From: Bacteroidales bacterium
GTDB taxonomy: Bacteria; Bacteroidota; Bacteroidia; Bacteroidales; F082
Direction of reading: 5' to 3'
Length of the DNA stretch: 37,299 bases
Assembly: GCA_016290215.1 (NCBI GenBank)
Contig: JAEETH010000032.1
Location: 1 to 37,299 of the forward strand
Each line of letters opens with the position of its first letter. Position 1 is the first letter of the stretch. This document shows, in pieces, positions 6,524 through 29,499 of this stretch. Under the pieces are notes generated by a model. That model searched no databases and was not told the DNA's origin. It saw nothing but the letters and a program-made list of their open reading frames with translations. The translations under genes and the position numbers were made by a program.

Positions 6524-6587
6524 GCTCCAAAAGATTGTCCGCCAAACCGAAAACAGATAAGTGAGCGCATAAAACGCAAGGCAATTT

Positions 6588-8944: not shown

Positions 8945-9091
8945 ATGAACGACGCCATCCTGAAGTTCCGCCGCTACGAGGATGCCTCATTGGAATACAC
9001 TGGCGTAAACCGCCATGCCTCCGACACCCGCATCGGCTTGATGGACAGCACCGTGTCGATTGAGGCAATGCTGGGGTATGGCAAAGATTAA
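8945..9091 (+). pseudogene. orphan 48-codon gene remnant of unknown family
   Basis: The frame encodes MNDAILKFRRYEDASLEYTG, followed by a Gly/Met-containing tail ending GYGKD and TAA. The reading stays open upstream (FNRAQ before the Met) with no plausible start signal. The composition and codon use look like real coding DNA and differ from the AT-rich RM gene just before it. This is most likely the 3' end of a gene whose front was lost when the RM segment was inserted. I do not recognise the family. Confidence 0.4.
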
Positions 9092-9168
9092 AATCATCTA
9101 TTATCGATTTTTACGAACAAATTGCTCTTGTTGCTCTTGCCCATTGATGTATTTTTGAGGAAAATATC

Positions 9169-9176
9169 TAATTTTG
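9169..9176 (+). promoter_or_regulatory. -7 box of the broken YhcG gene
   Basis: TAATTTTG fits TAnnTTTG. A TTG at 9144-9146 lies 22 nt upstream, close to the usual -33 spacing. The start codon is at 9208. Confidence 0.5.
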
Positions 9177-9207
9177 CAGTAGAAAAAACGCCTTAAACCG
9201 TGGAATC

Positions 9208-10013: not shown

Positions 10014-10032
10014 AAAACGAACACCTAACCCT

Positions 10033-10914: not shown

Positions 10915-10943
10915 AGAAACCGTTTCCCATATTCTTTTCAGAT

Positions 10944-12224
10944 TTAAATAGTTAATAGCATATTTGAGACAATGGTATCCGTCACGGTTTTTGGCACGCC
11001 ACATTCAGCAGCCAAATCCGGCCATTGTGAGGCTACTTCGCTTACCTCATCGATAATCATTGCGGCATCCTTGATGTTGTTTTGATGGGCAAACGTCATC
11101 AGGTCTTGCCTCGTGATGTCGTCAAATTTACCATTGATCGACATTTGGTGTGTAGCCGTCCACCCACCTTTGGGATTATAGGCGTATCCCATGTCGTAAG
11201 CCGGTGAGAGTCGCCAAATGCCATCTTCGTCCATCAAGAATGAGATATTTTTGGTGTGGTCATCCTGGTTACGCACCACCACGTTGAACACCATACGCCT
11301 GAACATCTCCTGAGCAGCCGAGTAGGGCAGACGCAAGGCCCTCATCACGTTGAAAGCCTGTTCGTAGGAATAGGCGCGATGAATCCGATAGTCGAAATGG
11401 GCTATGCCGCAGAGCGTCTGCAGGTGGATTTTTTTGCCGTTATTGCGGTCGAAGCGCTGGGTGAGGAAGTGTGCCCGTCCGTTTTCCTCAATCAACGAGC
11501 AGTCCGTCATCTCGATGCCACAGGCTTTCGCCAGCTTATAGAACGAATACTCCAAACGGCCATGGTTGCCCGTCGCCTTAAAACCTACAGTCGCACTGAC
11601 TCCATCCAACTTAATCAGATAGTAGTTGAATCCTGCGGGTGCTTCCACTTGACCCGATCGAACTTCGCCGGTTTCTTTATTATAGGCAATGATGGCCTTG
11701 GCTCTTTGTCCTCCAGCCGAGGTCCCTAACCGCAGGATTTCGGCAATGGCCGCTTTCTTGTCATCATTGAGATTCACACCGAAGGACGTTTTTTCCGTCA
11801 AGGCATCACGGGCCACCTTCACCAACGAATCAATCTCGAAAAGGGCATTAGGGTCGTATGTAAAATCCATAGCAGGCTCGAACTCCAAGGCACCCATGCA
11901 ACGCTTTCCCAAGAAACACAAGGTCTCGATGGGGTTGCTGCTTGTACGGCCAGTCAAGGCCAACCACCTATCGAACAAGGCACGACCGTAGGTGTCAGGG
12001 AGCGAATCGGCCAACATGCCAGGCAAGCCCTTGTAAGTTTCCCTATCGAGGCTAGCAAAGGAATAAACACGCCCTTCTTGCACAGGCATCATCAATGGAG
12101 AAGGCTCCAAGCCACGTCCAACGAAGCTGCTGTCGTATTCAAATCTCGCAACGTTATACCGCTCGTCCCATCGGAAAGTGCCGACAGGCATGCCAAACAT
12201 GTTCACCTTTGCTACATCTACCAT
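10944..12224 (-). CDS. hipA: HipA-family serine/threonine kinase toxin
   Basis: A 426-aa protein with HipA architecture. The N-subdomain 1 is at about residues 1-110 (WDERYNVARFEYDSSFVGRG, ending GKRCMGALEFEP). The Gly-rich loop GTSAGGQRAKA is at 167-177, with the lysine of LIKLDG near 205. The catalytic loop VVRNQDDHTKN has Asp321 as base and Asn326. The DFG-like SPAYDMG has metal-binding Asp344. All kinase residues appear intact. Known HipA proteins phosphorylate an aminoacyl-tRNA synthetase and slow growth; the target here is unknown. It overlaps the upstream hipB by 7 nt, so the antitoxin is translated first. A tiny C-terminal extension beyond the kinase core is ordinary. Confidence 0.88.
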   Translation of the reverse strand: MVDVAKVNMFGMPVGTFRWDERYNVARFEYDSSFVGRGLEPSPLMMPVQEGRVYSFASLDRETYKGLPGMLADSLPDTYGRALFDRWLALTGRTSSNPIETLCFLGKRCMGALEFEPAMDFTYDPNALFEIDSLVKVARDALTEKTSFGVNLNDDKKAAIAEILRLGTSAGGQRAKAIIAYNKETGEVRSGQVEAPAGFNYYLIKLDGVSATVGFKATGNHGRLEYSFYKLAKACGIEMTDCSLIEENGRAHFLTQRFDRNNGKKIHLQTLCGIAHFDYRIHRAYSYEQAFNVMRALRLPYSAAQEMFRRMVFNVVVRNQDDHTKNISFLMDEDGIWRLSPAYDMGYAYNPKGGWTATHQMSINGKFDDITRQDLMTFAHQNNIKDAAMIIDEVSEVASQWPDLAAECGVPKTVTDTIVSNMLLTI

Positions 12225-12565
12225 GTCGATTCCTCCTTGCTATATTGATGCAGTTTTCCAACGGCCCGTTTTCTAGTTTTGTTTTTTGAAGTGTGGACCA
12301 ACTCATAGTATTCATTAGGGCTTAATTGTTCCTCTTCAACCAAGGGTTGAAGCACATCGAGCAGCCCCAAAGTGCGCAACAACCGTAATAGGGAGTCGAA
12401 GGAACCAATCTCGCCTTTTTCTATTTTTTTCACCGACGACAATGACACTCCCGCTGCCTCGGCAAGGCTCTGCTGGGTGATGTTCTGCTTCAGCCTTACT
12501 TGTCGAACCCGATTCCCAATCTTCTCAAGAATCATCTTGTCTGCAAGCATATAGATATCATCCAT
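12218..12565 (-). CDS. hipB: HipB-like XRE-family antitoxin/repressor
   Basis: A 115-aa protein. Residues about 14-70 form a helix-turn-helix of the XRE type: IGNRVRQVRLKQNITQQSLA, then AAGVSLSSVKKIEKGE. The C-terminal 40 residues are basic (KNKTRKRAVGKLHQYSK) and could contact the kinase or DNA. Its gene precedes and overlaps hipA by 7 nt, the standard antitoxin-first order. It should bind the inverted repeat around its own promoter (12578-12616) and repress the operon together with HipA. Confidence 0.85.
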   Translation of the reverse strand: MDDIYMLADKMILEKIGNRVRQVRLKQNITQQSLAEAAGVSLSSVKKIEKGEIGSFDSLLRLLRTLGLLDVLQPLVEEEQLSPNEYYELVHTSKNKTRKRAVGKLHQYSKEESTW

Positions 12566-16145: not shown

Positions 16146-16174
16146 GAAAAGACCGCAAATGCGGTCTTTTCTCA
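16143..16174. terminator. bidirectional terminator between convergent genes
   Basis: TGAGAAAAGACCGCA (16143-16157) and TGCGGTCTTTTCTCA (16160-16174) form a perfect 15-bp stem with a 2-nt loop. A/T-rich arms provide a U-run for both strands. It contains the stop codons of both the glutaminyl cyclase gene and the DUF4476 gene. Confidence 0.85.
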
Positions 16175-16915
16175 TAAGCCTTGGATATATTCGTTCAGCT
16201 CTCGTTTCGAAGAATCGTAGGTGAGCACTTCGTTTAACAAGTAGTATTTATTCTTTTCCGTGCAATAGGGGTAAGCGAACTTGGCAAACTCTAACTTATT
16301 GCTTTCGAAGGAGAACAGCTTGCAGATGTTGGCGATTTGGCTCGCTGTCATTGGATTGTTGGAAATGACTTGTTTCGCCACCGTCAGTTTAGTGTCATCA
16401 AACGACTCATTTGAAATCATGCGTACCACCTCGTTATAGTCTTCGGGATTCATACCCTGTGGCATAGGAGGAAGTGGAGGAACAGGCGGTGTGGGCATAA
16501 TGTTCTGGTTTCCTTGTGGCATAGGTGGCACATGGGGTAACAACAAATCCATAGTCAGTTCGGGACGGATATGTGCTTGTGTGAAGTCTAAACCGAACAA
16601 GCCATCGTATTGTGCGATGTTGAGGCTTTGCGAACGTGACATGTCGACATACTGGCCAACGCAGTTGTGAAACCTGTTGTCGAGTTCTACTCGAATGTGG
16701 AAGTCTTCGGGCCAAAAGTTTCTGACGCAAATGGAATGGACAGGATTCTCGTTTTGTAAAACGTCGTCGACAAAAAGCCAAAAGCCTTGATGGTTGGTGG
16801 AAATGACGGTCAATGTGGTGGATTGTCCTTGATGTTCAAAGTGATGCGACCGTAACTGTGCCATGGCAGGCATGGTGAACAAAAGAATGAACGCAAAAAA
16901 TAAGTGTTTTTTCAT
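16172..16915 (-). CDS. exported DUF4476 protein with proline-rich linker
   Basis: A 247-aa protein. The signal peptide at residues 1-19 ends PAMA and is followed by Gln20, a predicted glutaminyl cyclase substrate. Residues 20-127 are a beta-rich domain of unknown type. A Pro/Met-rich linker (PPMPQG... PPVPPLPP) spans about 128-155. Residues 156-245 match DUF4476: VVRMISNESFDDTKLTVAKQ, then SFESNKLEFAKFAYPYC. This family occurs almost only in exported Bacteroidota proteins; its function is unknown. No clear -7 box is visible upstream, but the palindrome at 16944-16971 separates it from the T9SS protein gene before it. Confidence 0.75.
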   Translation of the reverse strand: MKKHLFFAFILLFTMPAMAQLRSHHFEHQGQSTTLTVISTNHQGFWLFVDDVLQNENPVHSICVRNFWPEDFHIRVELDNRFHNCVGQYVDMSRSQSLNIAQYDGLFGLDFTQAHIRPELTMDLLLPHVPPMPQGNQNIMPTPPVPPLPPMPQGMNPEDYNEVVRMISNESFDDTKLTVAKQVISNNPMTASQIANICKLFSFESNKLEFAKFAYPYCTEKNKYYLLNEVLTYDSSKRELNEYIQGL

Positions 16916-16989: not shown

Positions 16990-19587
16990 TCATTCCACGA
17001 TGACTTTCTTGGTCACTACTTTTCCGCCGATAATGTTGACGAAATAGAGACCAGGTGCCCAGCCGCTGACGTCGATGGTGGCTTGCTTGTCCATCACGAA
17101 GCCGCGCACTTCTTGGCCTTGGGCGTTCAAGATATGGACGCAGAGTTTGCCCATTTCGTAATCCGTGGCGATGGTCATCTGATGCTTCACTGGGTTGGGC
17201 GAAATGCTCACCGTGAACGGGTCTTTCTCGAAGTCGGGATATTCCTTGACATCAACTAATACACCGTCGTTGTTGGAACGGCTTACCACCATGCCTGAGA
17301 CCCTCAGCAGCGGATTGCTGGGATTCGAGCATTGGATGCACGAGTTTTGTCCGCTGACACAGTCAGGGTAGTTGGGATGGCATTGGTCAAGATAAGAGGG
17401 GTCAAATTGATAGAAGAGGTGGGCGCCTCCGTCGGGCAGGTATTCGTTCATGTCATAGTCCCACACCATGCCCATGCTGCCTGGGCACCAACCGCTGCGG
17501 GAGTAGGTCCAAGTGCCAGGTTGGTCATTACACCCTGACGGATTGGGGCTGCAAGAACGCCAGAGGTGCTGGTCATATTTAGGCTGTCCGTTCACGAAAA
17601 TGTGGTGCGTGGCCTCATAGAACTCGGCTGCGTTGCCCGTGTTGTAAGCACCACCGCTTGTGTTGCTCCAATTGTGTCCGGTGGTGATGATTTTCAGGTG
17701 CGCTTCCTCGGTGTTTTCGGCAAAGTCGAAGTCCATCTCGGGCACAGGTTGTTGGTTGGCATAGTCGCCGAAGTCGTAGGTACCAAACCAGATGGGTTGC
17801 ACGTCACTGTAAAGGTAGTCGGGTGTGCCTTTCTGCATGTTGAAGGTCAGGATAGGGCTGAAACTCCAGCTCTGCCAGATTTCGTAATACACCTCAAATT
17901 CTACCAAGCCTTGAAGGATGGAGGTGTAGTCGGTGACATCGATATTGTCGTCGCACTCTATTCCGAAGGGTGAGCAGTAGCGGAACAACTCAACCCACTC
18001 TCCACGATGGTTTTTCACACGCACATAACCGATATGGTCGTAAGGGTCGCAGTTGCCATTCACGCAGCGGTGGTCATAGTGGGCATTAATCGAGGCAAAA
18101 GCACCTACATGTGAAGGCAGGGCATATTCGCCAAGGGCGGTTTGGCCAGAGGAAGTCACCACCAAGTCGCCATTCATAGCCACAGCATCCACATTGTTGA
18201 AGTCATTGGTCACTGTGAAGTGGTTGCTGACCGAGGTGGTCTTGCCTCCCGATTGGGTGATGGTGGCGGTCAGGTCAAAGTCGCCAAAGGCGGTTGGCTC
18301 CCATGATGCGTACCAATAGCCGTTTTCCGGATTGTCGGGATAGGCGGTCTGCAATGATACGGTTTGCCCGCCGATGGTGCACGACACATTCTCAAACTTG
18401 ATGACATTGCCGTGTTCGACGTAGGCACTCAATACCAACATCATGGGTTTGAGTTCAGGCATATAGACGTTGAGGCCGTCGTAGGGTCTGCGGATGGTGA
18501 TTTCTGGAGTGAAATTGTCGGGATTGACCACCTCAAAGGTACGGTTCACGGCGGGAGCGGCTTGCCATTGCGTGCCATCGCCGGCTTGTGTGGCGCGCAC
18601 TTTCACAATGCCTTCCTCGCCAGTCATAGTGACAGTGTTGCCCTCCAAAGTGGCTGGGCCTTCCATGATTTCAAAAGTGACGGGCAACCCCGAAGTGGCC
18701 GTGGCATTGAGCGTGAACGGCTCGTCAAATACGAGCTTGTCAGGGATGGCTTCAAACTCGATGAACTGCGACGCTAATCCTGCGGGCGTGTGACGCACCA
18801 CCACGTTGTCGAAGCCGCCATGCGAGCTGCTGAGGAAGAACACGCCGTCCCATGCAGCGGGGTCGAAGCGGTTGCCACTGCCAGGAGTGAGGCCTGCATT
18901 GATGCCTTGTACCTCGGGAATGGGTTCAAATTCTCCCGTGCAGCCATGGTCGGCGAAAAGGGTGACGGAGCCTTGGCCATCGTTGGCTTCAAGGTCAATC
19001 ATGATTTTCCAACGCGTCCATCCCGTTTCGGGCGATTCGTAGTCGAACGAGGCTGCGATTTCGTTGTTGGGCAGCACGATGCCTGTGACAAACGAAGGTC
19101 GTGGGTCGACGCCGGTCGTGACGAAGTAAATGCCGCCATCTTGGGTGGGTAGGGCAGGGTTGGGGTGAGTGGCTTCATAACTCATCGGGGGCAGCACGGT
19201 GCCGTCGCCGTTGGCATCATAGCCAATGCCGAAGCAGGTGCCCCACCAATTGCGCATCATGTCGATTTCTACCTCGATGATGCCGCCCGTTGAGAAGTCG
19301 AACTCGAAGTTTGGCGTTGTTTTATGGGTGGCCACTTCGCCGTAGTTGGTGTTGGCATTGTCGAAGAAGGCTCCCATGGTCTCATCGGGCGTAGTGGAGC
19401 CAAACGAGCTAATGTATTCGGTCTTCAGCACGCCGCCACCCGCACTGTGGGCGCGCGCCACCCAACCACCTTGGCCGTTCAAGGGCGCGTTTTCGGTGTA
19501 GCTGTTAAAGTCGTCGGAGGCAACGGTTTGTGCAGTTGCTCCTAAGGCAAAAGCCATTAATGCTAAGAGTAGTGATAATCTTTTCAT
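16990..19587 (-). CDS. T9SS-exported PNGase F-like protein, paralogue A
   Basis: An 865-aa protein. I chose the ATG at 19587 (MKRLSLLLALM), since it directly begins the signal peptide ending GATA before Gln20. Residues about 21-270 are a jelly-roll-like region with an acidic DANGDGT loop. About 275-460 are Ig-like (TSGLPVTFEIMEGPATLEGN, ITIRRPYDG). About 465-735 align with PNGase F: CDPYDHIGYVRVKN, GEWVELFRY, GTPDY, NAAEFYEATHHI and SRSGWCPGSMG. By alignment Asp517, Glu569 and Glu655 correspond to PNGase F Asp60, Glu118 and Glu206, so all catalytic residues are kept. PNGase F releases whole N-glycans from Asn. A Cys-rich stretch (736-753) follows. Residues 790-865 are a type A sorting domain, so the enzyme is expected on the cell surface. 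The substrate is unknown. Confidence 0.8.
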   Translation of the reverse strand: MKRLSLLLALMAFALGATAQTVASDDFNSYTENAPLNGQGGWVARAHSAGGGVLKTEYISSFGSTTPDETMGAFFDNANTNYGEVATHKTTPNFEFDFSTGGIIEVEIDMMRNWWGTCFGIGYDANGDGTVLPPMSYEATHPNPALPTQDGGIYFVTTGVDPRPSFVTGIVLPNNEIAASFDYESPETGWTRWKIMIDLEANDGQGSVTLFADHGCTGEFEPIPEVQGINAGLTPGSGNRFDPAAWDGVFFLSSSHGGFDNVVVRHTPAGLASQFIEFEAIPDKLVFDEPFTLNATATSGLPVTFEIMEGPATLEGNTVTMTGEEGIVKVRATQAGDGTQWQAAPAVNRTFEVVNPDNFTPEITIRRPYDGLNVYMPELKPMMLVLSAYVEHGNVIKFENVSCTIGGQTVSLQTAYPDNPENGYWYASWEPTAFGDFDLTATITQSGGKTTSVSNHFTVTNDFNNVDAVAMNGDLVVTSSGQTALGEYALPSHVGAFASINAHYDHRCVNGNCDPYDHIGYVRVKNHRGEWVELFRYCSPFGIECDDNIDVTDYTSILQGLVEFEVYYEIWQSWSFSPILTFNMQKGTPDYLYSDVQPIWFGTYDFGDYANQQPVPEMDFDFAENTEEAHLKIITTGHNWSNTSGGAYNTGNAAEFYEATHHIFVNGQPKYDQHLWRSCSPNPSGCNDQPGTWTYSRSGWCPGSMGMVWDYDMNEYLPDGGAHLFYQFDPSYLDQCHPNYPDCVSGQNSCIQCSNPSNPLLRVSGMVVSRSNNDGVLVDVKEYPDFEKDPFTVSISPNPVKHQMTIATDYEMGKLCVHILNAQGQEVRGFVMDKQATIDVSGWAPGLYFVNIIGGKVVTKKVIVE

Positions 19588-19611
19588 GGTAAATGGATGA
19601 ATTAGTTTGGG

Positions 19612-19642
19612 CAAAAGTAGTCATTTTGCTCAAATTGCACAA
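19612..19642 (-). promoter_or_regulatory. promoter of PNGase-like gene A
   Basis: On the minus strand TACTTTTG (19612-19619) is preceded by TTG (19640-19642) at 20 nt. This is the normal -33/-7 layout, 25 nt upstream of the start codon. Confidence 0.6.
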
Positions 19643-19654
19643 TTTTGGGCAAAT

Positions 19655-19687
19655 AAAAAATGCCGTCAACGCATTGACGGCATTTTT
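19655..19687. terminator. terminator of PNGase-like gene B
   Basis: AAAAAATGCCGTCAA (19655-19669) and TTGACGGCATTTTT (19674-19687) form a stem of about 14 bp over a 4-nt loop, with A/T tracts on both sides. It lies 21 nt past the stop of paralogue B and just upstream of the promoter of A, so the two genes appear to be separate transcripts. Confidence 0.85.
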
Positions 19688-19707
19688 GTTGAGTTGATGT
19701 CGGTTTA

Positions 19708-22362
19708 TTATTCAATGACCACTTTCTTGGTCACGACCTTTCCGCCAACGATGTTGACGAAATACACGCCAGCCGGCAGGTCGCTGACATCGATGGTGGC
19801 TTTGCTATCCATGCTGAAGCTACGCACCTCGACGCCATTGGCGTTCAGGATATGGACACCCATGCGGCCTAATTCGTAGTCTGTCGTGATGGTCATCTGG
19901 TTCTTCACGGGGTTGGGAGTGATGGCTACCTTGAATGGATCCTTGTCCACATCGAAATACTCAGGCGTGTCAAGCAGGATATCGGTGTGGTGGCTGTAAG
20001 TCACTAACTTGCCAGAAACCTTGATGTAGGGGTTTTGGGAATCTTGGCAGTTGGGGCAGTTGTTTTGTCCGTTGACGCAGTCGGGGTAGTTGGGATGGCA
20101 TTGGTCAATGTAGTCGGGGGCAAATTCGTAGGTCAGTTCTGCACCGCCGTTGTCGAGGTAGTCATCGAGGCTGTAGCGCCACACCAAACCTATGCTGCCT
20201 GGGCACCAGCCACTACGGTTGTAGGTCCAAGTGCCAGGTTGGTTGTTACACCCGGCTGGGTTGGGGTTACAAGTACGCCAGAGATGTTGTGTGTACGTTG
20301 TTGCACCATTAATTTTAATATTGTGCGTGGCATCGTAGAACTCGGCAGCGTTGCCTGTATTGTAGTTGCCGTTGGAGCCGCTACTCCAGTTGTGGCCTGT
20401 CGAGACGAGGCGCAGTTCAGCTTTTTCAACGCAGGGGTCAAATTCGACATTGCGGGTGGGCACGGAGAGCTGGTTGGCATAGTCGCCGAAGCTGTAGTTG
20501 CCAAACCACAATTCGTTCATGTCGACGTAAGGATAGTCAGGTGTGCCTTTGCTGTATTCGAAGAGGATGGTGGGGTTGTAGCCACTGCCGTCCCAAACAT
20601 CGAAGTGCACCTCAAATTCAACGAGGCCTTGCAGCAGGCTGGTGAAGTCGCTGACGTCGAGGTCGTCTTCGCACTGTATGCCAAACGGAGTAACATAGCG
20701 GAAGAGTTCCACCCATTCGCCACGGTAGTTCTTGATGCGGCAATAACCCACACGGTCGTATGGGTCGCAGTCGCCGTTCACGCAGTTGTGGTCATAGTGC
20801 ATGTTGATGGCGTTGAAGGCATTGACATGGGAGGGGAAGATATAGTCGGCATAGTTGGTCGCGTTGGAGCTCGATACCACCAAGTCACCATTGCAGGCGG
20901 TCACCACCATGTCGTTGTAGGTGGTGGTCACCTCGAAGGTGTTGGAGGCCGAAGTGGTCTTGCCACCAGTTTGCTTGATGTAGACCGTCATGTTGTAGGT
21001 GCCTTCGCCAGAGGGTGTCCATGAGGTGTACCAATAGCCGTTTTCGGGGTTGTCGGGATGTTCGGTCCTCAAGGTCAGTTCTTGTCCGTCAACAGCGCAT
21101 TTCACTTCTTCGAATTTGAGGACATCGGGATGGTCGATGTAGGCGCTCAACACAATCATGATGGGGTTCTCGAAATCAGGCATGTAGACCTTGGTGCCAT
21201 CATAGGGACGACGGATGGTGATTTCAGGAGCATAGTTTTCAGGGTCAACGACATAGAATGTACGTGTCACCGTGGGTGCGGCCTGCCATTGCTCGCTGTC
21301 GCCAGCTTGTAAGGCACTCACTTTCACTTCGCCTTCTTCGCCCGTAAGCGTGAGGATGCTGCCTTCCACCGTGGCGGGGCCTTCGACAACCTCAAAGGTC
21401 ACAGGAAGACCTGAGGTGGCAACGGCATTCAGTGTGATGGGGGCAGCATAAACGAGTTGGTCGGTGATGGCTTCAAAGTCGATGAACTGGGCTTCCATGC
21501 CGCCAGGGGTGTGGCGGACGGTGAAGTTGTCGAAGCCGCCCCAACCGCTGTTGAGCATGAAGATTTTATCCCACATGGCAGGGTCGAATTTGTCGCCTGA
21601 GCCAGGGGTGAGGCCCATGTTGATGCCTTGGCAATCGGGCACGGGTTCAAATTCGCCGTGCAGCACGTCGCGCTTCATATATAAGGTGACGGCACCTGCG
21701 CCATTGTTGGCATCGAGGTCCATGGAGATTTTCCAACGGTACCATTGGTGTGATGGGTCAAATTCAATGTCGCTGGCCAATTTGTTGTTAGGCAACACGA
21801 CACCGTTGAAGAAACGCGGGTCAGTGCCCGTGTTGGTAGTCAACATGTAGACACCGCCGTCGAGCTTGGTGCTCGTGGAATCGGGGTTGATAGGCTCATA
21901 GTTGCCCTTAATGGGAGGCAGCACAAAGCCGTCGCCATCACCGTCGTAACCGATACCGAAGAGGTCGCCCCAGTGTTCGCGCCACATGTCGCATTCGATT
22001 TCGAGGATGCCACCCGTCGAGAAGTCGAAGCCGAATTCGTCGATGTTACGAGTGGCGATGTCGCCGTAGCTGGTGCCTGAGCAGGTCGAGAACACACCGA
22101 TGGTTTCGTCGGGTGTAGGCATTTGGGGTTGAGAGCCCCACCAGTAGGCAAGATAGCCGGTGTACATATACCTGTTACCGTTACCGGCGCTATGCACCTT
22201 GGTTCTCCAGCCACTTTGACCGTTGAGCGGGGGACGATTTAGAGGGTTTGAGTCTCCGTCGTCGGTGTAGGCACAGTCGTTGAAGTCGAAGGTGACTTCG
22301 ATTTGGGCAGTAAGCCCGATGGCGAAAGCCATCATCGCAATGAGTAGAAATACTTTTTTCAT
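19708..22362 (-). CDS. T9SS-exported PNGase F-like protein, paralogue B
   Basis: An 884-aa protein with the same layout as paralogue A. A signal peptide ends GLTA before Gln20. The N-terminal region includes the acidic loop DGDGDGF. The Ig-like region contains RRPYDGTKVYMP. The PNGase F-like domain spans about 485-755, followed by a Cys-rich stretch CHPNYPDCVNGQNNCPNC, and a sorting domain covers about 810-884. Asp536 and Glu674 match PNGase F Asp60 and Glu206. The Glu118 position is Asp588 (VEFEVHFDVW), unlike A and C, a conservative change that could alter activity or specificity. The gene has its own promoter and terminator. It is the middle member of the tandem trio. Confidence 0.8.
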   Translation of the reverse strand: MKKVFLLIAMMAFAIGLTAQIEVTFDFNDCAYTDDGDSNPLNRPPLNGQSGWRTKVHSAGNGNRYMYTGYLAYWWGSQPQMPTPDETIGVFSTCSGTSYGDIATRNIDEFGFDFSTGGILEIECDMWREHWGDLFGIGYDGDGDGFVLPPIKGNYEPINPDSTSTKLDGGVYMLTTNTGTDPRFFNGVVLPNNKLASDIEFDPSHQWYRWKISMDLDANNGAGAVTLYMKRDVLHGEFEPVPDCQGINMGLTPGSGDKFDPAMWDKIFMLNSGWGGFDNFTVRHTPGGMEAQFIDFEAITDQLVYAAPITLNAVATSGLPVTFEVVEGPATVEGSILTLTGEEGEVKVSALQAGDSEQWQAAPTVTRTFYVVDPENYAPEITIRRPYDGTKVYMPDFENPIMIVLSAYIDHPDVLKFEEVKCAVDGQELTLRTEHPDNPENGYWYTSWTPSGEGTYNMTVYIKQTGGKTTSASNTFEVTTTYNDMVVTACNGDLVVSSSNATNYADYIFPSHVNAFNAINMHYDHNCVNGDCDPYDRVGYCRIKNYRGEWVELFRYVTPFGIQCEDDLDVSDFTSLLQGLVEFEVHFDVWDGSGYNPTILFEYSKGTPDYPYVDMNELWFGNYSFGDYANQLSVPTRNVEFDPCVEKAELRLVSTGHNWSSGSNGNYNTGNAAEFYDATHNIKINGATTYTQHLWRTCNPNPAGCNNQPGTWTYNRSGWCPGSIGLVWRYSLDDYLDNGGAELTYEFAPDYIDQCHPNYPDCVNGQNNCPNCQDSQNPYIKVSGKLVTYSHHTDILLDTPEYFDVDKDPFKVAITPNPVKNQMTITTDYELGRMGVHILNANGVEVRSFSMDSKATIDVSDLPAGVYFVNIVGGKVVTKKVVIE

Positions 22363-22387
22363 AAGGTTTTGAATTAGTTTGAAAAGG

Positions 22388-22419
22388 CAAAAATAGATAC
22401 TTTGATTGAATCAATGCAA
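22388..22419 (-). promoter_or_regulatory. promoter of PNGase-like gene B
   Basis: The minus-strand TATTTTTG (22388-22395) has TTG (22417-22419) 21 nt upstream. The start codon is 26 nt downstream of the -7 box. Confidence 0.6.
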
Positions 22420-22435
22420 TTTTTTGTGATGAATG

Positions 22436-24985
22436 TTAGTCCACTACCATTTTTTTCGTCACCAAACTACCACCAAGCATCTGCACGGTGTATACCCCTG
22501 AGGGCCAACGGCTCACATCTAATGTGCGTTGTCCTTCCATGGTAAAGGTGGCCACAATCTGTCCCTGCATGTTGAGCACCATCACGCTGACGGCACCTTT
22601 CTCATAATCAGTACGTAATGTAACTTGTCCTTTGGCAGGGTTGGGGTAGATCTCGGCTTCAAAAGCCGTTTCGGGGCGTTCGGGATGCAGGCTGGTTAGG
22701 ACGGCTTCGTCGTTGCTGTAGGTGATGACCTTGCCTGCCACGCGAAGCACGGGATTATCGGGGGCGGCACATTCTGTGCAGGTCGTTCCGTCGATGCAAT
22801 CGGGATGGTTGGGATGGCAATAGTCGAGGTAAGTTGGATCGAACTGATAGAACAATTCGGCTTGTCCTGCTGCGAGGTATTCCGTCAGGTCGTAGTCCCA
22901 CACCTTGCCGATGCTGCCTGGGCACCAGCCGCTGCGGTTGTAAGTCCAGGTGCCAGGTTGGTTATTACAACCTGCAGGATTGGGGTTGCAGGTACGCCAA
23001 AGGTGCTGGTCGTATCTCGGTTGGCCGTTCACGAGGATGTGGTGCGTGGCCTCGTAAAATTCAGCGGCGTTACCCGTGTTGTAGGTGCCGTTGGTGCCGC
23101 TGCTCCAATTGTGCCCCGTGGTGGTCAGCTTCAGTTTGGCACTTTGGGCGTTTTCGCTGAAAGAGTAATTGACGACGGGAACGGGCTGCTGATTGGCGTA
23201 GTCGCCGAAGGCGTATGTGCCAAACCATATCTCATCCACATCGGCATAGAGGTATTCGGGGGTTCCTTGGGTGAAGCTGAAAATCAGTGTCGGGTTGTAG
23301 CCGCTGCCAGCCCAGCTTTCCATGTAGAACTCAAATTCCACCAAGCCTTGCAACAAAGAGGTGTAGTCGGTCACGTCCACGTCGTCCTCGCACTGTATGC
23401 CGAAGGGGGTGATGTAGCGGAACAGTTCCACCCATTCGCCACGGTAATTTCTGATTTTCACACCGCCCACACGGTCGTAGGGGTCGCAGTTGCCGTTCAC
23501 ACAATTGTGGTCGTAGTGAGCTGTAATCTCGTTGAAAGCCCCCACATGCGTAGGAAATATGTATTCGCCTTTGGCACTATGCACCGTAGGGGTGCAAACG
23601 AGGTCGTATAAGGCCATCACATCCAAGTGGCTTTCGATAATGTTGACGAGTTCAATGCTGTTGCTGATGGTGGTTACTTTGCCACCTGATTGGGTGACCC
23701 TTACGCTGAGGTCGTAAACACCGTTGAAATTGGGCGTTGTTGGCGACCAAAAACCATAATAATAGCCGTTTTCGGGGTCGTCGGGATAGTCGGTATGCAG
23801 CACAACATCTTCGCCATCGATGGTTGCAGTGATGTCAGTGAACTTGATGACTTCGGGATGCTCAATATAAGCTGAGACTACAATCATAAATGGGTGAATG
23901 TCATCCAAATAGACCTTGGTGCCTTGGTATGGCCGGCGAATCTTCAACTCGGGTTCATAAGCGAACGGGTCAACTACCTCGAACGTCTTCACCACATCGG
24001 GAGCAGGCAGCCAGTTGGCATCTCCAGCTTGGGTGGCTTTCAGCTTCACAATGCCCGTTTCGCCCGTTAAGGTCAATACATTGTTATTAATGGTTGCTGG
24101 GCCTTCCATCAACTCGAAACTGACAGGAAGTCCCGACGAAGCAGTGGCTTCTAAAGTGATTGGATCGTTGAATATTAATTGGTTAGAAATGTCTGCCATC
24201 TCAATGAGTTGGGCATTGCCGTCGGGCTGCTGGCGCACGAGGAGGTTGTCGAAGCCGCCCGTGCCGCCTTGCGAATGGAAGAAAAGGCCGTCCCATACAT
24301 GGTAGTCATTCTTGTCGCCACTGCCAGGGGTGAGGTTCATGCAGACGTTGGTGCAACCCGCCATCTGAATCCATTCTCCTTCGCAGTTGGGCTTCACGAA
24401 CACCGTCACCGCTCCAGCACCATCGTAGGCGGAGAAGTCGAACGACATTTTGTAGCGGCTCCAGCCGCCTTGTTCGTAGTCGAACTCGACGCTTGATTCG
24501 TCGGGCAGGCACACTTTGGCATGACCGCTGTCGCCTTGGGCCTTTACGTAAAGGTAGACGCCGCCATCGGCATCCGTCATACCAGGCAGGATATGTCCGT
24601 CGCCATCACCATCGAAGCCTACACCGAAGAAAGCGCCCCACCAAGTGCGGTTCATGTCCATCTCAAGGTCCATGATGCCACCATTTTGGAAATTGAAATT
24701 GAAGTTTTCGGAAGCTTTGCGCGTGGCAGTGCGACCTACGCCTGCGCCACCGTAGGGATACCAGATGGCAAGGCTTTCGTCAGGGGCCAAATCGGAGTCG
24801 CAGACAAAGCATACATTGAAGTCCTGGGATGAAGCGGCAGTTTGGTAATGCGTCATCCAGCCATCTTGTCCGTTGAGATTTTGCGAGCCTTCAATGAGGC
24901 TGTTGAAGTTGTAAAGGTATTCCACTTGGGCTGTTGCCGTGAAAGCCAAAAGTGACAACAGGGAGAGGAGTATGGTCTTTTTCAT
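22436..24985 (-). CDS. T9SS-exported PNGase F-like protein, paralogue C
   Basis: An 849-aa protein, the most divergent of the three at the N-terminus. A signal peptide ends TATA before Gln20, and an acidic DGDGDGH loop sits in the N-terminal region. The Ig-like region contains RRPYQGTKVYLDD. The PNGase F-like domain spans about 455-725: CDPYDRVGGVKIRN, GTPEYLY, NAAEFYEATHHI and NRSGWCPGSIG. Asp504, Glu556 and Glu642 align with PNGase F Asp60, Glu118 and Glu206, so it should be active. A Cys-rich stretch (CHPNHPDC...CTEC) follows. The sorting domain at about 775-849 has EIYPNPAKGQ and ends in LVTKKMVVD. Its promoter faces the lipoprotein array across a 106-nt divergent spacer. Confidence 0.8.
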   Translation of the reverse strand: MKKTILLSLLSLLAFTATAQVEYLYNFNSLIEGSQNLNGQDGWMTHYQTAASSQDFNVCFVCDSDLAPDESLAIWYPYGGAGVGRTATRKASENFNFNFQNGGIMDLEMDMNRTWWGAFFGVGFDGDGDGHILPGMTDADGGVYLYVKAQGDSGHAKVCLPDESSVEFDYEQGGWSRYKMSFDFSAYDGAGAVTVFVKPNCEGEWIQMAGCTNVCMNLTPGSGDKNDYHVWDGLFFHSQGGTGGFDNLLVRQQPDGNAQLIEMADISNQLIFNDPITLEATASSGLPVSFELMEGPATINNNVLTLTGETGIVKLKATQAGDANWLPAPDVVKTFEVVDPFAYEPELKIRRPYQGTKVYLDDIHPFMIVVSAYIEHPEVIKFTDITATIDGEDVVLHTDYPDDPENGYYYGFWSPTTPNFNGVYDLSVRVTQSGGKVTTISNSIELVNIIESHLDVMALYDLVCTPTVHSAKGEYIFPTHVGAFNEITAHYDHNCVNGNCDPYDRVGGVKIRNYRGEWVELFRYITPFGIQCEDDVDVTDYTSLLQGLVEFEFYMESWAGSGYNPTLIFSFTQGTPEYLYADVDEIWFGTYAFGDYANQQPVPVVNYSFSENAQSAKLKLTTTGHNWSSGTNGTYNTGNAAEFYEATHHILVNGQPRYDQHLWRTCNPNPAGCNNQPGTWTYNRSGWCPGSIGKVWDYDLTEYLAAGQAELFYQFDPTYLDYCHPNHPDCIDGTTCTECAAPDNPVLRVAGKVITYSNDEAVLTSLHPERPETAFEAEIYPNPAKGQVTLRTDYEKGAVSVMVLNMQGQIVATFTMEGQRTLDVSRWPSGVYTVQMLGGSLVTKKMVVD

Positions 24986-25091: not shown

Positions 25092-26150
25092 ATGAAAACA
25101 TACTATCATTTACTTTTATTTGTTTTTTTCGGTGCGTTTTTCGCTTCATGCAGCACCGATGTGGAAATGTATACCGATTACAAGGATGTGGCCATCATTT
25201 ATGGCCTGCTTAATTATCAATCCGACACCAATTATATAAAGATAACCCGTGCTTTTTGCGGCACCAACGATGATCCCATTAATGCCCATGAAGTGGCACT
25301 GATTGCCGATTCGAGCAACTATCCTGGCAAATTAGAAACCCGCCTAGTTGAATTGAAAAGCACGATTGGGAGCCAATATGAGCCCACAGGACGCGAGTTT
25401 GTGCTCGACACGATGACCATCCATGATAAAGAAGAGGGCACGTTTTATTCTCCCGACCAAAAGATCTATTACACCACGGAACAACTTAATGCGAGCAACA
25501 ATGGAAGTAGGTATAAGTATCGTCTTAAGGTTGTCAAGCCCGATGGCGACACGGTCACGGCCCAAACCACCATGGTCGGCGATGAAGAATTCCGCATCTT
25601 GTCGGGTAGTGCTAATTTTCAGTTAGGACACACAAATGCGATGGGAAAGATTGTCTTTAGGGCTGACGGCATGGCCTCCCTCTATGATGTCAAGGTGCGG
25701 TTCAATTATAGTGAGCAACATGTCGGTGAGGAAATGAAATGGAAACATATCAGCCGATCGTTTGGCACAAAGACCATTGATAAGTATCTATTAGAAGAAG
25801 GTACTGAAAATACCTATTATTTACAATATTCTCTGAATTGGTTGTTCAATGCCCTTGAGAGTGCCATCGGCAGCGATACCGTTGTGGACGGCAACCATCC
25901 CAACGTGGTTCGCCACATCGGCAGTTTCGTCATCTCCATCAGTGCCGGTGGTGACGATATGAGCATGTATTATTCCGCAAATCAGGCACAACTGAACAGC
26001 CCTATGTCGCTCGTATCGTTATATACCAACATTGATGGCGGCTATGGCTTGTTTTCGTCGCGTACCACCGTAGAAAAAACGGTAAAACTAACCCTTTTTG
26101 CAACCAGAGACCTCTATAGTGTGACCGCATGGGGGTTCAGGGAACAATAA
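25092..26150 (+). CDS. array lipoprotein 1 (unknown family, possibly DUF4249-like)
   Basis: A 352-aa lipoprotein. The signal peptide ends FFASC, with the lipidated Cys followed by STDVEMYTDYKDVAIIYGLL. The mature part is beta-rich with recurrent short strands. I do not recognise a confident family; the exported one-domain form with VYGLL-like strands resembles DUF4249 proteins, which usually accompany surface machinery. Nucleotide-level identity is patchy. The 5' half is nearly identical to lipoprotein 2, while a segment of about 190 bp in the 3' half (from 25858) is nearly identical to lipoprotein 3. It probably sits in the outer membrane or periplasm. Confidence 0.7.
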   Translation: MKTYYHLLLFVFFGAFFASCSTDVEMYTDYKDVAIIYGLLNYQSDTNYIKITRAFCGTNDDPINAHEVALIADSSNYPGKLETRLVELKSTIGSQYEPTGREFVLDTMTIHDKEEGTFYSPDQKIYYTTEQLNASNNGSRYKYRLKVVKPDGDTVTAQTTMVGDEEFRILSGSANFQLGHTNAMGKIVFRADGMASLYDVKVRFNYSEQHVGEEMKWKHISRSFGTKTIDKYLLEEGTENTYYLQYSLNWLFNALESAIGSDTVVDGNHPNVVRHIGSFVISISAGGDDMSMYYSANQAQLNSPMSLVSLYTNIDGGYGLFSSRTTVEKTVKLTLFATRDLYSVTAWGFREQ

Positions 26151-26189
26151 ATTAATGGAAAAAAGTGTAGCTTTCGGGAAAAAAAGTCC

Positions 26190-26197
26190 TATTTTTA
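26190..26197 (+). promoter_or_regulatory. degenerate -7 box before array lipoprotein 2
   Basis: TATTTTTA sits where the near-identical spacer before lipoprotein 4 has TATTTTTG. The final G of the consensus is lost, so this promoter may be weak and lipoprotein 2 may depend on read-through. Confidence 0.35.
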
Positions 26198-26221
26198 CCT
26201 CTTCATTTAAACTTATAAACA

Positions 26222-27325
26222 ATGAAAAAATTGTATTTTGCTCTTTCATTATTGGCCTGCATGACCTTGTTCAACGCGTGCAGCACCGATGTGGAACTTT
26301 ATACCGACTACAAGGATGTGGCCATCATTTATGGTTTGCTCGATCATCAGGCCGACACCAACTTTATTAAGATTACCAGAGCTTTTTGCGGCACCAACGA
26401 TGATCCCATTAATGCGCATGAAGTGGCGCTGATTGCCGATTCGAGCAACTATCCTGGTAAATTAGATGCCCGCCTCGTTGAATTGAAAAGCACGATTGGG
26501 AGCCAATATGAGCCCACAGGACGCGAGTTTGTGCTCGACACGATGACCATCCATGATAAAGAAGAGGGCACGTTTTATTCCCCCGACCAAAAGGTCTATT
26601 ACACCACGGAACAACTTAATGCGAGCAACAATGGAAGTAGGTACAAGTATCGTCTCATTGTGGTTAAGCCCGATGGCGACACAGTCACTGCACAAACCAC
26701 TATGGTCGGCGATGAGGAGTTCCTCATTTTGTCGAATAGTGTTGATTTTCAGTTGGCGCACTCCGATAGGATGGGAAGGATTGTTTTCAAGGCTGCCGGT
26801 ATGGCTTCAATGTACGATATCAAGATGCAGTTCAACTATCGCGAGCAGTTGGCTGGACAGGAAATGAAGTATAGAAATGTCAGCTGTTCATTTGGCACCA
26901 AGTCGCTTTATGAGTATCCGAAGGTTGAGTATTTGGAAAACACGTATTATCAGGAATACTCAAAAAATTTGCTGTTTAATGCGCTTGAGGATGCCATTGG
27001 CAGCGACACGGTGGTCAATTTCAATCATCCCAATGTGGTGCGCTATTTTGATAGTTTTGTCATATTCATCAGTGCTGGTGGTGATGAGTTGAATTACTAT
27101 AATTCTGTATATCAAGCGCAACTGGATAGTCCGATTTCGCTTGTTTCAACCTTTACCAGTATCGAAGGCGGTTACGGCTTGTTCTCTTCGCGTACTGCCA
27201 TAAAAAAGGCGGTAAGGCTTTCTTCCAAAGCTTTACGAGACCTCTATAGCAAAGAGTCATGGGGCTTTAGAGAGTCCCGAAGTCAAAAGATATTCGTAGA
27301 TGAAATTAAAAACAGTTACTTATGA
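26222..27325 (+). CDS. array lipoprotein 2
   Basis: A 367-aa paralogue. The lipobox is LFNAC. Its signal peptide is almost the same as that of lipoprotein 4 (MKKLYFALSLLACMTLFNAC versus MKKLFFALSLLACVTMFNAC). The central half is nearly identical to lipoprotein 1. The C-terminus differs: where 1 and 3 stop after WGFREQ or WGFKEQ, this one continues with about 15 extra residues ending KNSYL, and its TGA overlaps the ATG of lipoprotein 3 (ATGA). This links the translation of 2 and 3. Function is unknown. Confidence 0.7.
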   Translation: MKKLYFALSLLACMTLFNACSTDVELYTDYKDVAIIYGLLDHQADTNFIKITRAFCGTNDDPINAHEVALIADSSNYPGKLDARLVELKSTIGSQYEPTGREFVLDTMTIHDKEEGTFYSPDQKVYYTTEQLNASNNGSRYKYRLIVVKPDGDTVTAQTTMVGDEEFLILSNSVDFQLAHSDRMGRIVFKAAGMASMYDIKMQFNYREQLAGQEMKYRNVSCSFGTKSLYEYPKVEYLENTYYQEYSKNLLFNALEDAIGSDTVVNFNHPNVVRYFDSFVIFISAGGDELNYYNSVYQAQLDSPISLVSTFTSIEGGYGLFSSRTAIKKAVRLSSKALRDLYSKESWGFRESRSQKIFVDEIKNSYL

Positions 27326-28380
27326 AAACACGGTTATTTTTCTTTTTTCTGCTGACAGTTTTGGCCATTTTCAGTGCTTGCAGCACCGATGTGGACATTT
27401 ATGCCGATTACAAGGATGTACCCATCGTTTATGGTTTGCTCGATTATCGGGCCGACACCAACTTTATTAAGATTACCCGAGCTTTTTGTGGTACCAACGA
27501 CAATCCCATTAATGCCAACGAGGTGGCGTTGATAGCCGATTCGAGCAACTATCCTGGCAAGTTGGAAGCTCGCCTCATTGAATTGAAAAGCGGAATTGGC
27601 GGCATCTATGAGCCTACAGGGTGCGAATTTGTGCTCGACACGATGACCATCCATGATAAAGAAGCGGGCACGTTTTATTCTCCCGACCAAAAGATCTATT
27701 ACACCACGGAACAACTTAATGCGAGAACCAATGGGAGTAGGTATAAGTATCGTCTTAAGGTTGTCAAGCCTGATGGCGACACGGTCACGGCCCAAACCAC
27801 TATGGTCGGCGATGAAGAATTCCGTATCTTGTCGGGTAGCGCAAATTTTCAAATGGAGCACTCCGATAAGCTGACTAAGATTATGTTTAAAGCCGATGGC
27901 ATGGCCTCTCTCTATGATGTCAAGATTCAGTTCAATTATGGTGAGCAACATGCTGGTGAGGAAATGAAATGGAAACACGTCAGTCGCTCGTTTGGAACGA
28001 AATCTCTTGATAGATACCAACGTGTTGAGGGTTCTGAAGACAGCTATTATTTGGAATATTCCGTGAATTGGTTGTTCAATGCTCTTGAGAGTGCCATCGG
28101 CAGCGATACCGTTGTGGACGGCAACCATCCCAACGTGGTTCGCCACATCGGCAGTTTCGTAATCTCCATCAGTGCCGGTGGTGACGATATGAGCATGTAT
28201 TATTCCGCAAATCAGGCACAACTGAACAGCCCTATGTCGCTCGTATCGTTATATACCAACATTGATGGCGGCTATGGTCTGTTCTCGTCTCGCACCACCA
28301 TCGAAAAAACGGTAGGACTCTCCTATTATGCCACGAGAGATCTTTACGCTATGTCGGCTTGGGGCTTCAAGGAACAATAA
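27322..28380 (+). CDS. array lipoprotein 3
   Basis: A 352-aa paralogue with lipobox IFSAC. It shares STDVDIYADYKDVPIVYGLL and the rest of the fold with its neighbours. About 190 bp from 28087 differ by only one or two bases from lipoprotein 1, whereas flanking codons have diverged at third positions. That is the mark of recent gene conversion or unequal exchange. It starts inside the stop of lipoprotein 2 with no spacer, unlike the other junctions. Confidence 0.7.
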   Translation: MKTRLFFFFLLTVLAIFSACSTDVDIYADYKDVPIVYGLLDYRADTNFIKITRAFCGTNDNPINANEVALIADSSNYPGKLEARLIELKSGIGGIYEPTGCEFVLDTMTIHDKEAGTFYSPDQKIYYTTEQLNARTNGSRYKYRLKVVKPDGDTVTAQTTMVGDEEFRILSGSANFQMEHSDKLTKIMFKADGMASLYDVKIQFNYGEQHAGEEMKWKHVSRSFGTKSLDRYQRVEGSEDSYYLEYSVNWLFNALESAIGSDTVVDGNHPNVVRHIGSFVISISAGGDDMSMYYSANQAQLNSPMSLVSLYTNIDGGYGLFSSRTTIEKTVGLSYYATRDLYAMSAWGFKEQ

Positions 28381-28417
28381 ATTAATGGAAAAAGTGCAGC
28401 TTTCGGGAAAAAAGCAC

Positions 28418-28425
28418 TATTTTTG
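28418..28425 (+). promoter_or_regulatory. -7 box before array lipoprotein 4
   Basis: TATTTTTG in a 69-nt spacer that is nearly the same as the 71-nt spacer before lipoprotein 2. It keeps the consensus G and lies 24 nt upstream of the start at 28450. Confidence 0.5.
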
Positions 28426-28449
28426 CCTCTTCATTTAAACTCATGAACG

Positions 28450-29499
28450 ATGAAAAAACTGTTTTTTGCTCTTTCATTATTGGCCTGCGTGACCATGTTC
28501 AACGCATGCAGCACCGATGTGGAACTCTATGCCGACTATAAGGATATCCCTGTGGTTTACGGCTTGCTTGATACTTCTGTTGATACCAATTTTGTGAGAA
28601 TCAACAGGGCTTTTTCGAGCAGCAACGACCATCCCATCAATGCCACCGAGGTGGCCATGATTGAGGATTCTTGTAACTATCCAGGCAAACTCAAAGCGTA
28701 TCTTTTGGAGCTGAAGAAATCCGGAAACGAATATGTCCCTACAGGTCGTGATACCATTTTTCTTGACACGTTAACGATTCTCGACAAGGACCCGGGCGTG
28801 TTTTATTCACCTCGTCAAAAGGTGTATTACACCACTGAAGCATTGAAGGAGAACACGGTCAGCCAACGTTATAGGTATCGTTTGGAGGTTTTTAAAGGCA
28901 ACGACACCATCACTTCTGAGACAGGCTTGGTGGGAGGTGAAGAATTTAGGATTCTCACTTATCAGGCCTCATTTATGTTGAGTGATAACTCCCCTTCTGG
29001 AAAATTATCTTTCAAACCTGCCGCCAATGCGGTTTTCTATGATGTGAAGATGGTCTTCAATTATCAAGAAAAACATGGTAATAAATTGGAGGATAAACAG
29101 GTAAAGTGGGATTTTGGTGTCCAAAGCATAGATCAACTTCCCTATGAGAATGGCGTTTACTATGTGACATACGAAATGAACTCTTTGTTTAACCTTTTGG
29201 AAGATGCCATCGGTAACGACACGGTATTTGATCCCAACCACCCCAATGTGGAACGGTATTTTGACGAGCGTCCCATCGAAATCATGATTGCAGCGGGAGG
29301 CGAAGAGCTTTATAATTACATCAGAGTGAATTCCGTGACGAGTTATTCCCAGGCTGTCCCCGACTATACCAATATTAAAGGCGGCTATGGCGTGTTCTCG
29401 TCACGAGTCAACCGCTCTAAGTCCGTTTTGCTTTCGACGTTTGCCCAAAATGACTTGTATGGCAAAAAAGAATGGGGATTCAAAGACATTTCGTTTTGA
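28450..29499 (+). CDS. array lipoprotein 4
   Basis: A 349-aa paralogue and the most diverged in its mature part. The lipobox is MFNAC, followed by STDVELYADYKDIPVVYGLL. It shares the motifs NHPNVERYF and GGYGVFSSR with the others, but most residues differ. It ends 15 nt before yicC, so yicC-gmk-nadD might be read from the same transcript; I see no terminator between them. Function is unknown. Confidence 0.7.
   Translation: MKKLFFALSLLACVTMFNACSTDVELYADYKDIPVVYGLLDTSVDTNFVRINRAFSSSNDHPINATEVAMIEDSCNYPGKLKAYLLELKKSGNEYVPTGRDTIFLDTLTILDKDPGVFYSPRQKVYYTTEALKENTVSQRYRYRLEVFKGNDTITSETGLVGGEEFRILTYQASFMLSDNSPSGKLSFKPAANAVFYDVKMVFNYQEKHGNKLEDKQVKWDFGVQSIDQLPYENGVYYVTYEMNSLFNLLEDAIGNDTVFDPNHPNVERYFDERPIEIMIAAGGEELYNYIRVNSVTSYSQAVPDYTNIKGGYGVFSSRVNRSKSVLLSTFAQNDLYGKKEWGFKDISF

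What the first reader, a model, noticed from the sequence alone, without database searches (positions are those of the whole stretch)
16990..24985. Three tandem T9SS-exported PNGase F-like proteins with a shared extra N-terminal architecture
Each of the three paralogues fuses a jelly-roll-like region with an acidic DxDGDG-type loop, an Ig-like region, a full PNGase F-like domain and a T9SS sorting domain. The CDPYD, NAAEF and SGWCPG blocks match PNGase F, and the key acids align with its Asp60, Glu118 and Glu206. Characterised PNGases are single genes with much shorter accessory parts. Three separately promoted copies in a row suggest a surface system for releasing N-glycans from different glycoproteins.
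Basis: partly seen in the sequence, partly recalled or inferred. Interest (0 to 1): 0.7.

Follow-up and report, generated by a model that had tools for sequence, protein, structure and literature searches.

The report
Tandem secreted PNGase F-like genes
An uncultured bacterium from a genus found in the guts of cattle, deer and horses carries three side-by-side genes for secreted enzymes that look able to cut sugar chains off glycoproteins; they belong to a known enzyme superfamily, but the repeated set, its unusual extra parts and its link to a nutrient importer are new details.

Summary
The observation largely holds. Three minus-strand genes (849, 884 and about 865 aa) each encode a signal peptide, an orphan N-terminal module with a D-x-[DN]GDG loop, Ig-like segments, a PNGase F-superfamily domain (about 33% identical to PNGase F; profile E 7e-38) and a type A T9SS tail. 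Asp60, Glu206 and Arg248 of PNGase F are kept in all three and in 131 of 131 long relatives. The genes are not recent duplicates: they fall in three old clades of a family with one to four copies per array in the genus of Candidatus Limimorpha (ruminant and horse gut). A fourth copy in the same genome sits behind SusC-SusD; that SusC is nearest, among solved structures, to peptide-binding BT2264. No GH18 was found in 60 genus genomes, while 57 of 60 have a PNGase-family gene. The core architecture with other N-modules occurs elsewhere in Bacteroidia, and a T9SS-tailed PNGase with extra modules (PNGaseDo) has been assayed in print. New variant of a known kind. Structure prediction could not be run; activity is inferred.

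The parts
22436..24985 (-). P3, clade A PNGase F-like protein, 849 aa
24212..24928 (-). P3 orphan N-terminal module (aa 20-258), DGDGDG at 24596-24613
   Evidence: limits set by motif; module search
23609..24211 (-). P3 two Ig-like segments (aa 259-459), fold unverified
   Evidence: limits by motif; Big_1 hits below cut-off in P1 and P2
22667..23608 (-). P3 PNGase domain (aa 460-773): D504=Asp60, E556=Glu118, W627=Trp191, E642=Glu206, R684=Arg248
22769..22819 (-). P3 Cys-rich loop CHPNHPDCIDGTTCTEC, downstream of the SGWCPG block
   Evidence: 131 of 131 long relatives
22439..22666 (-). P3 T9SS type A sorting tail
   Evidence: PF18962 50.6 bits; TIGR04183
19708..22362 (-). P2, clade C PNGase F-like protein, 884 aa; D536=Asp60, D588 at the Glu118 position, E674=Glu206, R716=Arg248; Cys loop 20047-20100
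16990..19587 (-). P1, clade B PNGase F-like protein, about 865 aa from the ATG (874 aa from the TTG at 19614); in TTG numbering D526, E578, E664, R706; Cys loop 17329-17382
19656..19687 (-). intrinsic terminator hairpin between P2 and P1, 14 pairs, followed by T tract
19612..19619 (-). TACTTTTG promoter-like element of P1
22388..22395 (-). TATTTTTG promoter-like element of P2
25011..25018 (-). TATTTTTG promoter-like element of P3
15003..16145 (+). M28 family peptidase, recurrent neighbour of these arrays in the genus
   Evidence: Pfam; synteny
16172..16915 (-). DUF4476 protein, frequent neighbour downstream of the array
   Evidence: Pfam; synteny

Best explanation
The three genes encode T9SS-exported amidases of the PNGase F superfamily that hydrolyse the GlcNAc-Asn bond of N-glycoproteins or glycopeptides at the cell surface, using Asp60 and Glu206 equivalents. 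Shown here: homology, conserved catalytic residues, export signals, a T9SS marker in the genome, separate old clades, lineage-specific N-module. Inferred: activity, substrate range, and that the N-module binds or positions substrate. Most likely the clades differ in how the core GlcNAc is held (positions 61, 118 and 120 vary between clades), so that one cell can strip several core types, such as plant core-fucosylated and high-mannose glycans from feed, fungal and host proteins. The released products would be taken up by other gene products; a sister PNGase in the same genome is the third gene behind a SusC-SusD pair.
For: Pfam and PDB matches. Asp60, Glu206, Arg248, Trp251, Cys231 and Cys252 kept in 131 of 131 distinct long relatives. 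Asp60 and Glu206 equivalents are essential in the distant relative Ngly2 (PMC12753239 passages). Six diverse superfamily members, one of them with three extra beta-sheet modules and a T9SS signal, were assayed; PNGaseL cleaved all substrates and the others were narrower (PMC12381499). 147 T9SS tail matches, 142 of them over the cut-off, and a 367-bit PorV match in the genome. Two GH92 and five GH29 matches. No GH18 or GH85 in the genome and no GH18 in 60 genus genomes, 26 of them at least 90% complete, against PNGase-family genes in 57 of 60 and 26 of 26. SusC-SusD immediately upstream of the fourth copy.
Against: No structure model and no assay. Position 118 is Asp in P2. N-glycanase_N is below its cut-off. 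No SusC or SusD among the 20 other ORFs of the window that were scanned. The genome is a MAG, 85% complete. GH18 absence rests on one Pfam model, though the same search matched 6 of 14 control genomes; GH85 was searched in the own genome only.
Confidence: 0.72

Rival explanations
1. The PNGases serve protein rather than sugar uptake: they strip N-glycans so that surface peptidases can cut glycoproteins and a peptide-type SusCD can import the peptides.
For: The SusC next to the fourth copy is nearest among solved chains to BT2264 (E 9e-83 against 1.1e-49 for the next), and so is its 86% identical orthologue upstream of a four-gene array. BT2263-64 was solved with bound peptide (PMC7782687 and PMC11992087 passages). 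An M28 peptidase lies near arrays of both locus types. Four fetched clade B copies have a neighbouring ORF matched by the P1-3 profile; the two of these that I scanned are T9SS-tailed M28 peptidases. The window holds a T9SS-tailed C10 peptidase.
Against: The linked SusD is nearest to other SusD proteins, several of them glycan binding by name, with BT2263 only at 1.5e-8. The best SusC stretch is the plug region. Cargo of SusCD cannot be read from sequence. The genome has GH92 and GH29 genes to use the glycans.
Confidence: 0.3
2. One or more of the copies has lost catalysis and acts as a surface lectin for N-glycans.
For: Relatives vary at position 118 (E 96, Q 29, D 5, V 1 of 131), and PNGase F Glu118Gln is reported to keep under 0.10% activity (PMC9102325 passage).
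Against: All three window copies keep an acid there and keep Asp60, Glu206 and Arg248. Position 118 also varies widely across the superfamily, and type II enzymes have Gly there and are active (PMC9522356 passages).
Confidence: 0.1
3. The domain is a PNGase F-like fold with a different amidase or binding role.
For: No assay known for this clade; about 33% identity to PNGase F; altered loop around Trp191, loss of the Cys204-Cys208 pair, and an added Cys-rich loop.
Against: The catalytic pair and Arg248 are invariant, and distant superfamily members, down to fish Ngly2, proved to be PNGases (PMC12753239 passages).
Confidence: 0.1

Closest known systems
PNGase F (type I), Elizabethkingia meningoseptica, PDB 1pgs/3pms
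   Same: Homologous catalytic domain; Asp60, Glu206, Arg248 and the Cys at 51, 56, 231 and 252
   Different: The chains are 314-326 residues long, without N-module, Ig segments or T9SS tail; Trp59 is Tyr here, the Cys204-Cys208 pair is absent, and a Cys-rich loop is added
PNGaseDo of Draconibacterium orientale (PMC12381499; passages and sections 16-17 seen, sequence not seen)
   Same: Three beta-sheet accessory modules, PNGase domain, T9SS signal; assayed as a PNGase
   Different: I could not obtain its sequence, so kinship to this clade is an inference; the paper calls most of its six genes orphans
Ig-Ig-PNGase-T9SS proteins of other Bacteroidia (L088-L096)
   Same: Same core from about profile position 270 on, same CHPN/CHPK..C..C..C loop, same tail; the window clade nests among them (98/96)
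   Different: N-terminal module is F5/8 type C or Laminin_G_3 in the five scanned, not the orphan module; no two matches on one contig, where only 7 or 3 candidates per genome were scored
PNGase F-II / Bacteroides group 2 PNGase
   Same: Superfamily; a copy of this type sits elsewhere in the same genome (C49)
   Different: Has the PF22252 N-terminal domain, no T9SS tail hit; far away in the tree
Ngly2 of zebrafish
   Same: PNGase F domain with the same catalytic pair; weak profile match (E 0.007)
   Different: Lysosomal, with protease-associated and thioredoxin-like domains

Membership tests
PNGase F superfamily | N-glycanase_C (PF09113) above its cut-off | tested here: met
   49.7, 40.1, 47.5 bits against 25
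PNGase F superfamily | N-glycanase_N (PF09112) above its cut-off | tested here: not met
   15.3 and 16.2 bits against 22.4; P1 not listed. The N half aligns to PNGase F from residue 24-28 on, so I read this as low model sensitivity
PNGase F superfamily | Asp60 and Glu206 equivalents | tested here: met
   3 of 3 in the window, 131 of 131 long relatives
PNGase F superfamily | acid at the Glu118 position | tested here: inconclusive
   Glu, Asp, Glu in the window; variable in the superfamily
PNGase F superfamily | two eight-stranded antiparallel beta-sheet units side by side | not testable with these tools
PNGase F superfamily | release of N-glycans | not testable with these tools
   needs an assay
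PNGase F-II (type II) | PF22252 N-terminal domain | tested here: not met
   no such hit; present in the C49 gene
PNGase F-II (type II) | Gly at the Glu118 position | tested here: not met
   Glu, Asp, Glu
PNGase A / PNGase H+ | PF12222 domain | tested here: not met
   no such hit at E 1 or better; the accession is taken from PMC12753239
T9SS type A cargo | C-terminal sorting domain (PF18962 / TIGR04183) | tested here: met
   all three
T9SS type A cargo | T9SS machinery in the genome | tested here: met
   PorV family 367.5 bits; other components not searched
SusCD-linked utilisation locus | SusC-SusD pair beside the genes | tested here: not met
   none among the 20 window ORFs scanned; met for the fourth copy on contig C86

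The most novel reading that the evidence does not exclude
Candidatus Limimorpha replaced the usual GH18 route by a diversified panel of surface PNGases, tied to a BT2264-like peptide importer, that takes N-glycoproteins apart for peptide as well as sugar; the clades A-D are tuned to different N-glycan cores by coupled changes at positions 61, 118 and 120, and Gln118 forms use another acid (Asp at the position of PNGase F residue 154 occurs in 25 of 29 of them).
Probability: 0.15. Interest if true: 0.7.

Novelty: new variant of a known kind. Interest (0 to 1): 0.5.

Why it matters
PNGase F is the standard tool of glycobiology and its natural specificity range is still being mapped. Here is a lineage with up to four long copies per array in which the catalytic pair is fixed while residues near the core GlcNAc vary between clades, a ready-made series for testing what decides core-fucose tolerance. 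It also points to a route for dietary and host N-glycans that relies on PNGases rather than GH18 in herbivore gut bacteria, and to a possible link between deglycosylation and peptide import.

Tried and rejected
Recent tandem duplication: rejected, since each window copy's nearest relative in another species is 83-86% identical while neighbours are 51-59% identical. Type II PNGase: rejected. N-module as a divergent LamG_3 or F5/8 domain: no support (hhalign probability 5.3 and 0.1), with shallow alignments of 3-4 rows, so a shared fold is not excluded. A compensating acid for Gln118: one candidate column, position 154 equivalent, not provable without a structure. Clade-specific positions: only 7 of 232 columns met the 80% rule; one of them is 120, which I recall as an active-site position. 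A sigma-70 scan gave 8 sites against 8.4 in shuffles and 11 terminators against 9.8, and did not list the hairpin; I relied on the Bacteroidetes TAnnTTTG motif, whose consensus I recall and did not look up. It is present in only 26 of 80 family members; the null there was a simple base shuffle, mean 3.0, maximum 7. PNGaseDo could not be placed because the one named-genome scan kept only the best 80 of 423 loci.

Rows dropped: one search left out four part-copies of own-genome genes and kept 81 copies; the type II-like ORFs gave no phmmer hit with the PNGase F piece, so they are in none of the residue counts. One search kept copies over 900 bits and 800 aa and merged those identical over the last 700 residues. 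A3 used 59 and A4 52 of the 85 rows left after thinning. In some searches only 7 and 3 candidates per genome were scored, so copy numbers there are lower bounds. Counts by eye: 44, 43, 30 and 14 of 60 genomes with a type II-like copy, a long copy, both, and type II-like only, from the table (type II-like meaning over 150 bits).

Full report
What is there. The window is the whole of contig C84 of a 3.8 Mb MAG, 85% complete. Three minus-strand genes lie in a row: P3 22436-24985, P2 19708-22362, P1 16990-19614. For P1 the ATG at 19587 is the likelier start, because it gives the same kind of signal peptide as the others. The gaps are 73 bp and, to that ATG, 120 bp. Each protein reads: signal peptide ending in AQ, N-module of about 240-270 residues, two segments resembling Ig domains, PNGase domain, T9SS tail.

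Is the domain really PNGase F-like? Yes by sequence. N-glycanase_C is above its cut-off in all three. phmmer with P3 reaches PNGase F at 1.7e-29, the profile at 7.3e-38. Identity is 32.6-33.0% over 221 columns. Across 131 distinct long relatives Cys56, Tyr at the Trp59 position, Asp60, Trp191, Glu206, Cys231, Arg248, Trp251 and Cys252 are invariant. The placing of Trp191 is less certain, since the loop around it differs in length. Position 61 is Arg in 97 and His in 34; position 118 is Glu 96, Gln 29, Asp 5, Val 1; position 120 is Trp 103, Tyr 28. In the window the 61/118/120 set is His-Glu-Trp (P1), Arg-Asp-Trp (P2), Arg-Glu-Trp (P3). Asp at 118 also occurs in Bacteroides group 1 PNGases, one of which was shown active (PMC9522356, passages). 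PNGase F itself is reported to show no activity with Asp100Asn (which I take as Asp60 in precursor numbers) and to keep under 0.01% and 0.10% with Glu206Gln and Glu118Gln (PMC9102325, passage). In a sample of 28 superfamily proteins, including the three, Asp60, Glu206 and Arg248 are constant while 118 is not.

A second shared feature is a Cys-rich loop, CHPN-x-P-x-C...C-x-x-C, after the SGWCPG block. It is in 131 of 131 long relatives and, as CHPN or CHPK, in the related proteins L088-L096. Disulfides or a metal site are both possible; I could not test this.

How old is the trio? In a tree of 81 full-length copies from the regions I fetched, the three fall in different clades: P3 in A (32 copies), P1 in B (17), P2 in C (5), the fourth own-genome copy in D (27). 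Window copies are 51-59% identical to each other; the nearest copy in another species is 86, 83 and 83% identical. So this is an old family with gene gain and loss at one place, not a new triplication. Among the 40 genomes with fetched copies the order A-C-B on one contig is seen in the window and in G012; A-C in G024; C-B in G028 and G031; A-B in G018, G048 and G058; A-D-D-B in G023 and G037; other genomes have A-D, D-A-B or single copies. The flanks YicC-DUF4249 on one side and M28, often with DUF4476, on the other recur in many of the 27 loci compared.

Who has it. In 60 genus genomes 57 have PF09113; by hand count from that table 43 have at least one long copy, 44 a type II-like copy, 30 both. 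The genus is that of Candidatus Limimorpha: G130 contig C35 has the length of the L. caballi record JAGHUX010000050.1 and the genes lie at the same places. Where the titles of the 80 named loci give a source it is ruminant gut or horse faeces. Outside the genus, 22 genomes among the 119 and 82 among the 295 (own genome not counted) match the profile at 1e-20. Most of these match only the core from about position 275 or the PNGase part; two places match only the Ig part; one genome (G107) matches over the full length. None shows two matches on one contig, but only 7 and 3 candidates per genome were scored in these calls. The five related Ig-Ig-PNGase-T9SS proteins that I scanned carry F5/8 type C or Laminin_G_3 modules in front. 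The window clade nests among such proteins with support 98/96, and with the Laminin_G_3 kind with 95/87. The orphan N-module was found in 18 of 100 family genomes, 46 places, all but one in open frames of 834-910 aa, the last a 389-aa frame at the place of a truncated copy. It looks private to these PNGases in this family sample; other families were not searched with it.

Expression. TAnnTTTG ends 24, 25 and 25 nt upstream of the three start codons; in the family 26 of 80 have it within 10-80 nt, against a base-shuffle mean of 3.0 and maximum 7. Between P2 and P1 a hairpin of 14 pairs with a T tract folds at -18.1 kcal/mol, z -4.26, 0 of 200 shuffles as good. The generic sigma-70 and terminator scan gave no more than shuffles.

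What surrounds the sister copies. The fourth own-genome copy (C86) directly follows SusC and SusD. Of 131 distinct copies 38 have this SusD immediately upstream: 22 of 59 with Arg61, Glu or Val118 and Trp120 (clade A type), 16 of 28 with Tyr120 (clade D type), none of 29 Gln118, 5 Asp118 and 10 His61-Glu118-Trp120 copies; copies with too little sequence upstream could not show it. The SusC proteins of G000 and G023 are 86% identical and both are nearest to BT2264 among solved chains (9e-83 and 1.6e-73), though the best stretch is the plug region. BT2263-64 was solved with peptide (PMC7782687, PMC11992087, passages). This makes a peptide-uptake reading worth testing; the SusD gives no such lead.

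How it most likely works. Shown: superfamily membership by sequence, catalytic residues, export tails, PorV. Inferred: the proteins reach the surface through T9SS, cut N-glycans from glycoproteins in the gut, and the released pieces feed GH92 and GH29 enzymes (2 and 5 matches) or, as peptides, an importer. No GH18 and no GH85 in the genome and no GH18 in 60 genus genomes suggest that PNGases are the main N-glycan releasing enzymes here; GH85 was not searched beyond the own genome.

Compared with what is known. The PNGase F superfamily tree of 1897 sequences in PMC12381499 and its PNGaseDo, with three beta-sheet modules and a T9SS signal, show that long T9SS-tailed PNGases are known and that one was assayed (passages and sections 16-17). 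A library search for Limimorpha or PNGase, which ranks papers with more of the terms first, listed five papers that hold PNGase only, so none holds both; two further searches listed no paper on tandem T9SS PNGases (ten titles seen of 34 and of 10). Most subscription papers are not held. What I take as new is the multi-clade array, the private N-module, the natural variation at 61, 118 and 120 within one genus, and the SusCD link. That is a new variant of a known kind.

Noticed in passing
window 2244-12565: Defence-like island, GC 36-39% over 2.5-10 kb: STAND NTPase with metallophosphatase domain (PDC-S60, 363 bits), type IIG-like methyltransferase, PDC-S02 protein, DUF3990 protein (PDC-M13B), HipA with an HTH partner.
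   Followed up: partly
window 223-1305: C10 family cysteine peptidase with a T9SS tail.
   Followed up: no
G000 C49 (L019:9146-10861): A type II PNGase with PF22252 domain and no T9SS tail hit in the same genome; of three neighbours scanned, one is chorismate synthase, one a weak symporter hit, one without hit.
   Followed up: partly
window 25092-29499: Three DUF4249 lipoprotein-like genes and one gene without Pfam hit in a row next to the array; DUF4249 genes sit beside the clade A copy in many relatives.
   Followed up: partly
L030:5994-7520, L033:5775-7304: T9SS-tailed M28 peptidases directly next to clade B PNGases.
   Followed up: partly
29 of 131 long relatives, for example L025 and L024: Natural Gln at the Glu118 position, with Asp at the position of PNGase F residue 154 in 25 of 29; the Glu118/His61 forms of clade B, including P1, lie among Gln118 forms in the tree.
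   Followed up: partly
genus genomes G039, G052, G043 and others: 14 of 60 genus genomes show only the type II-like PNGase and no long copy (hand count).
   Followed up: no
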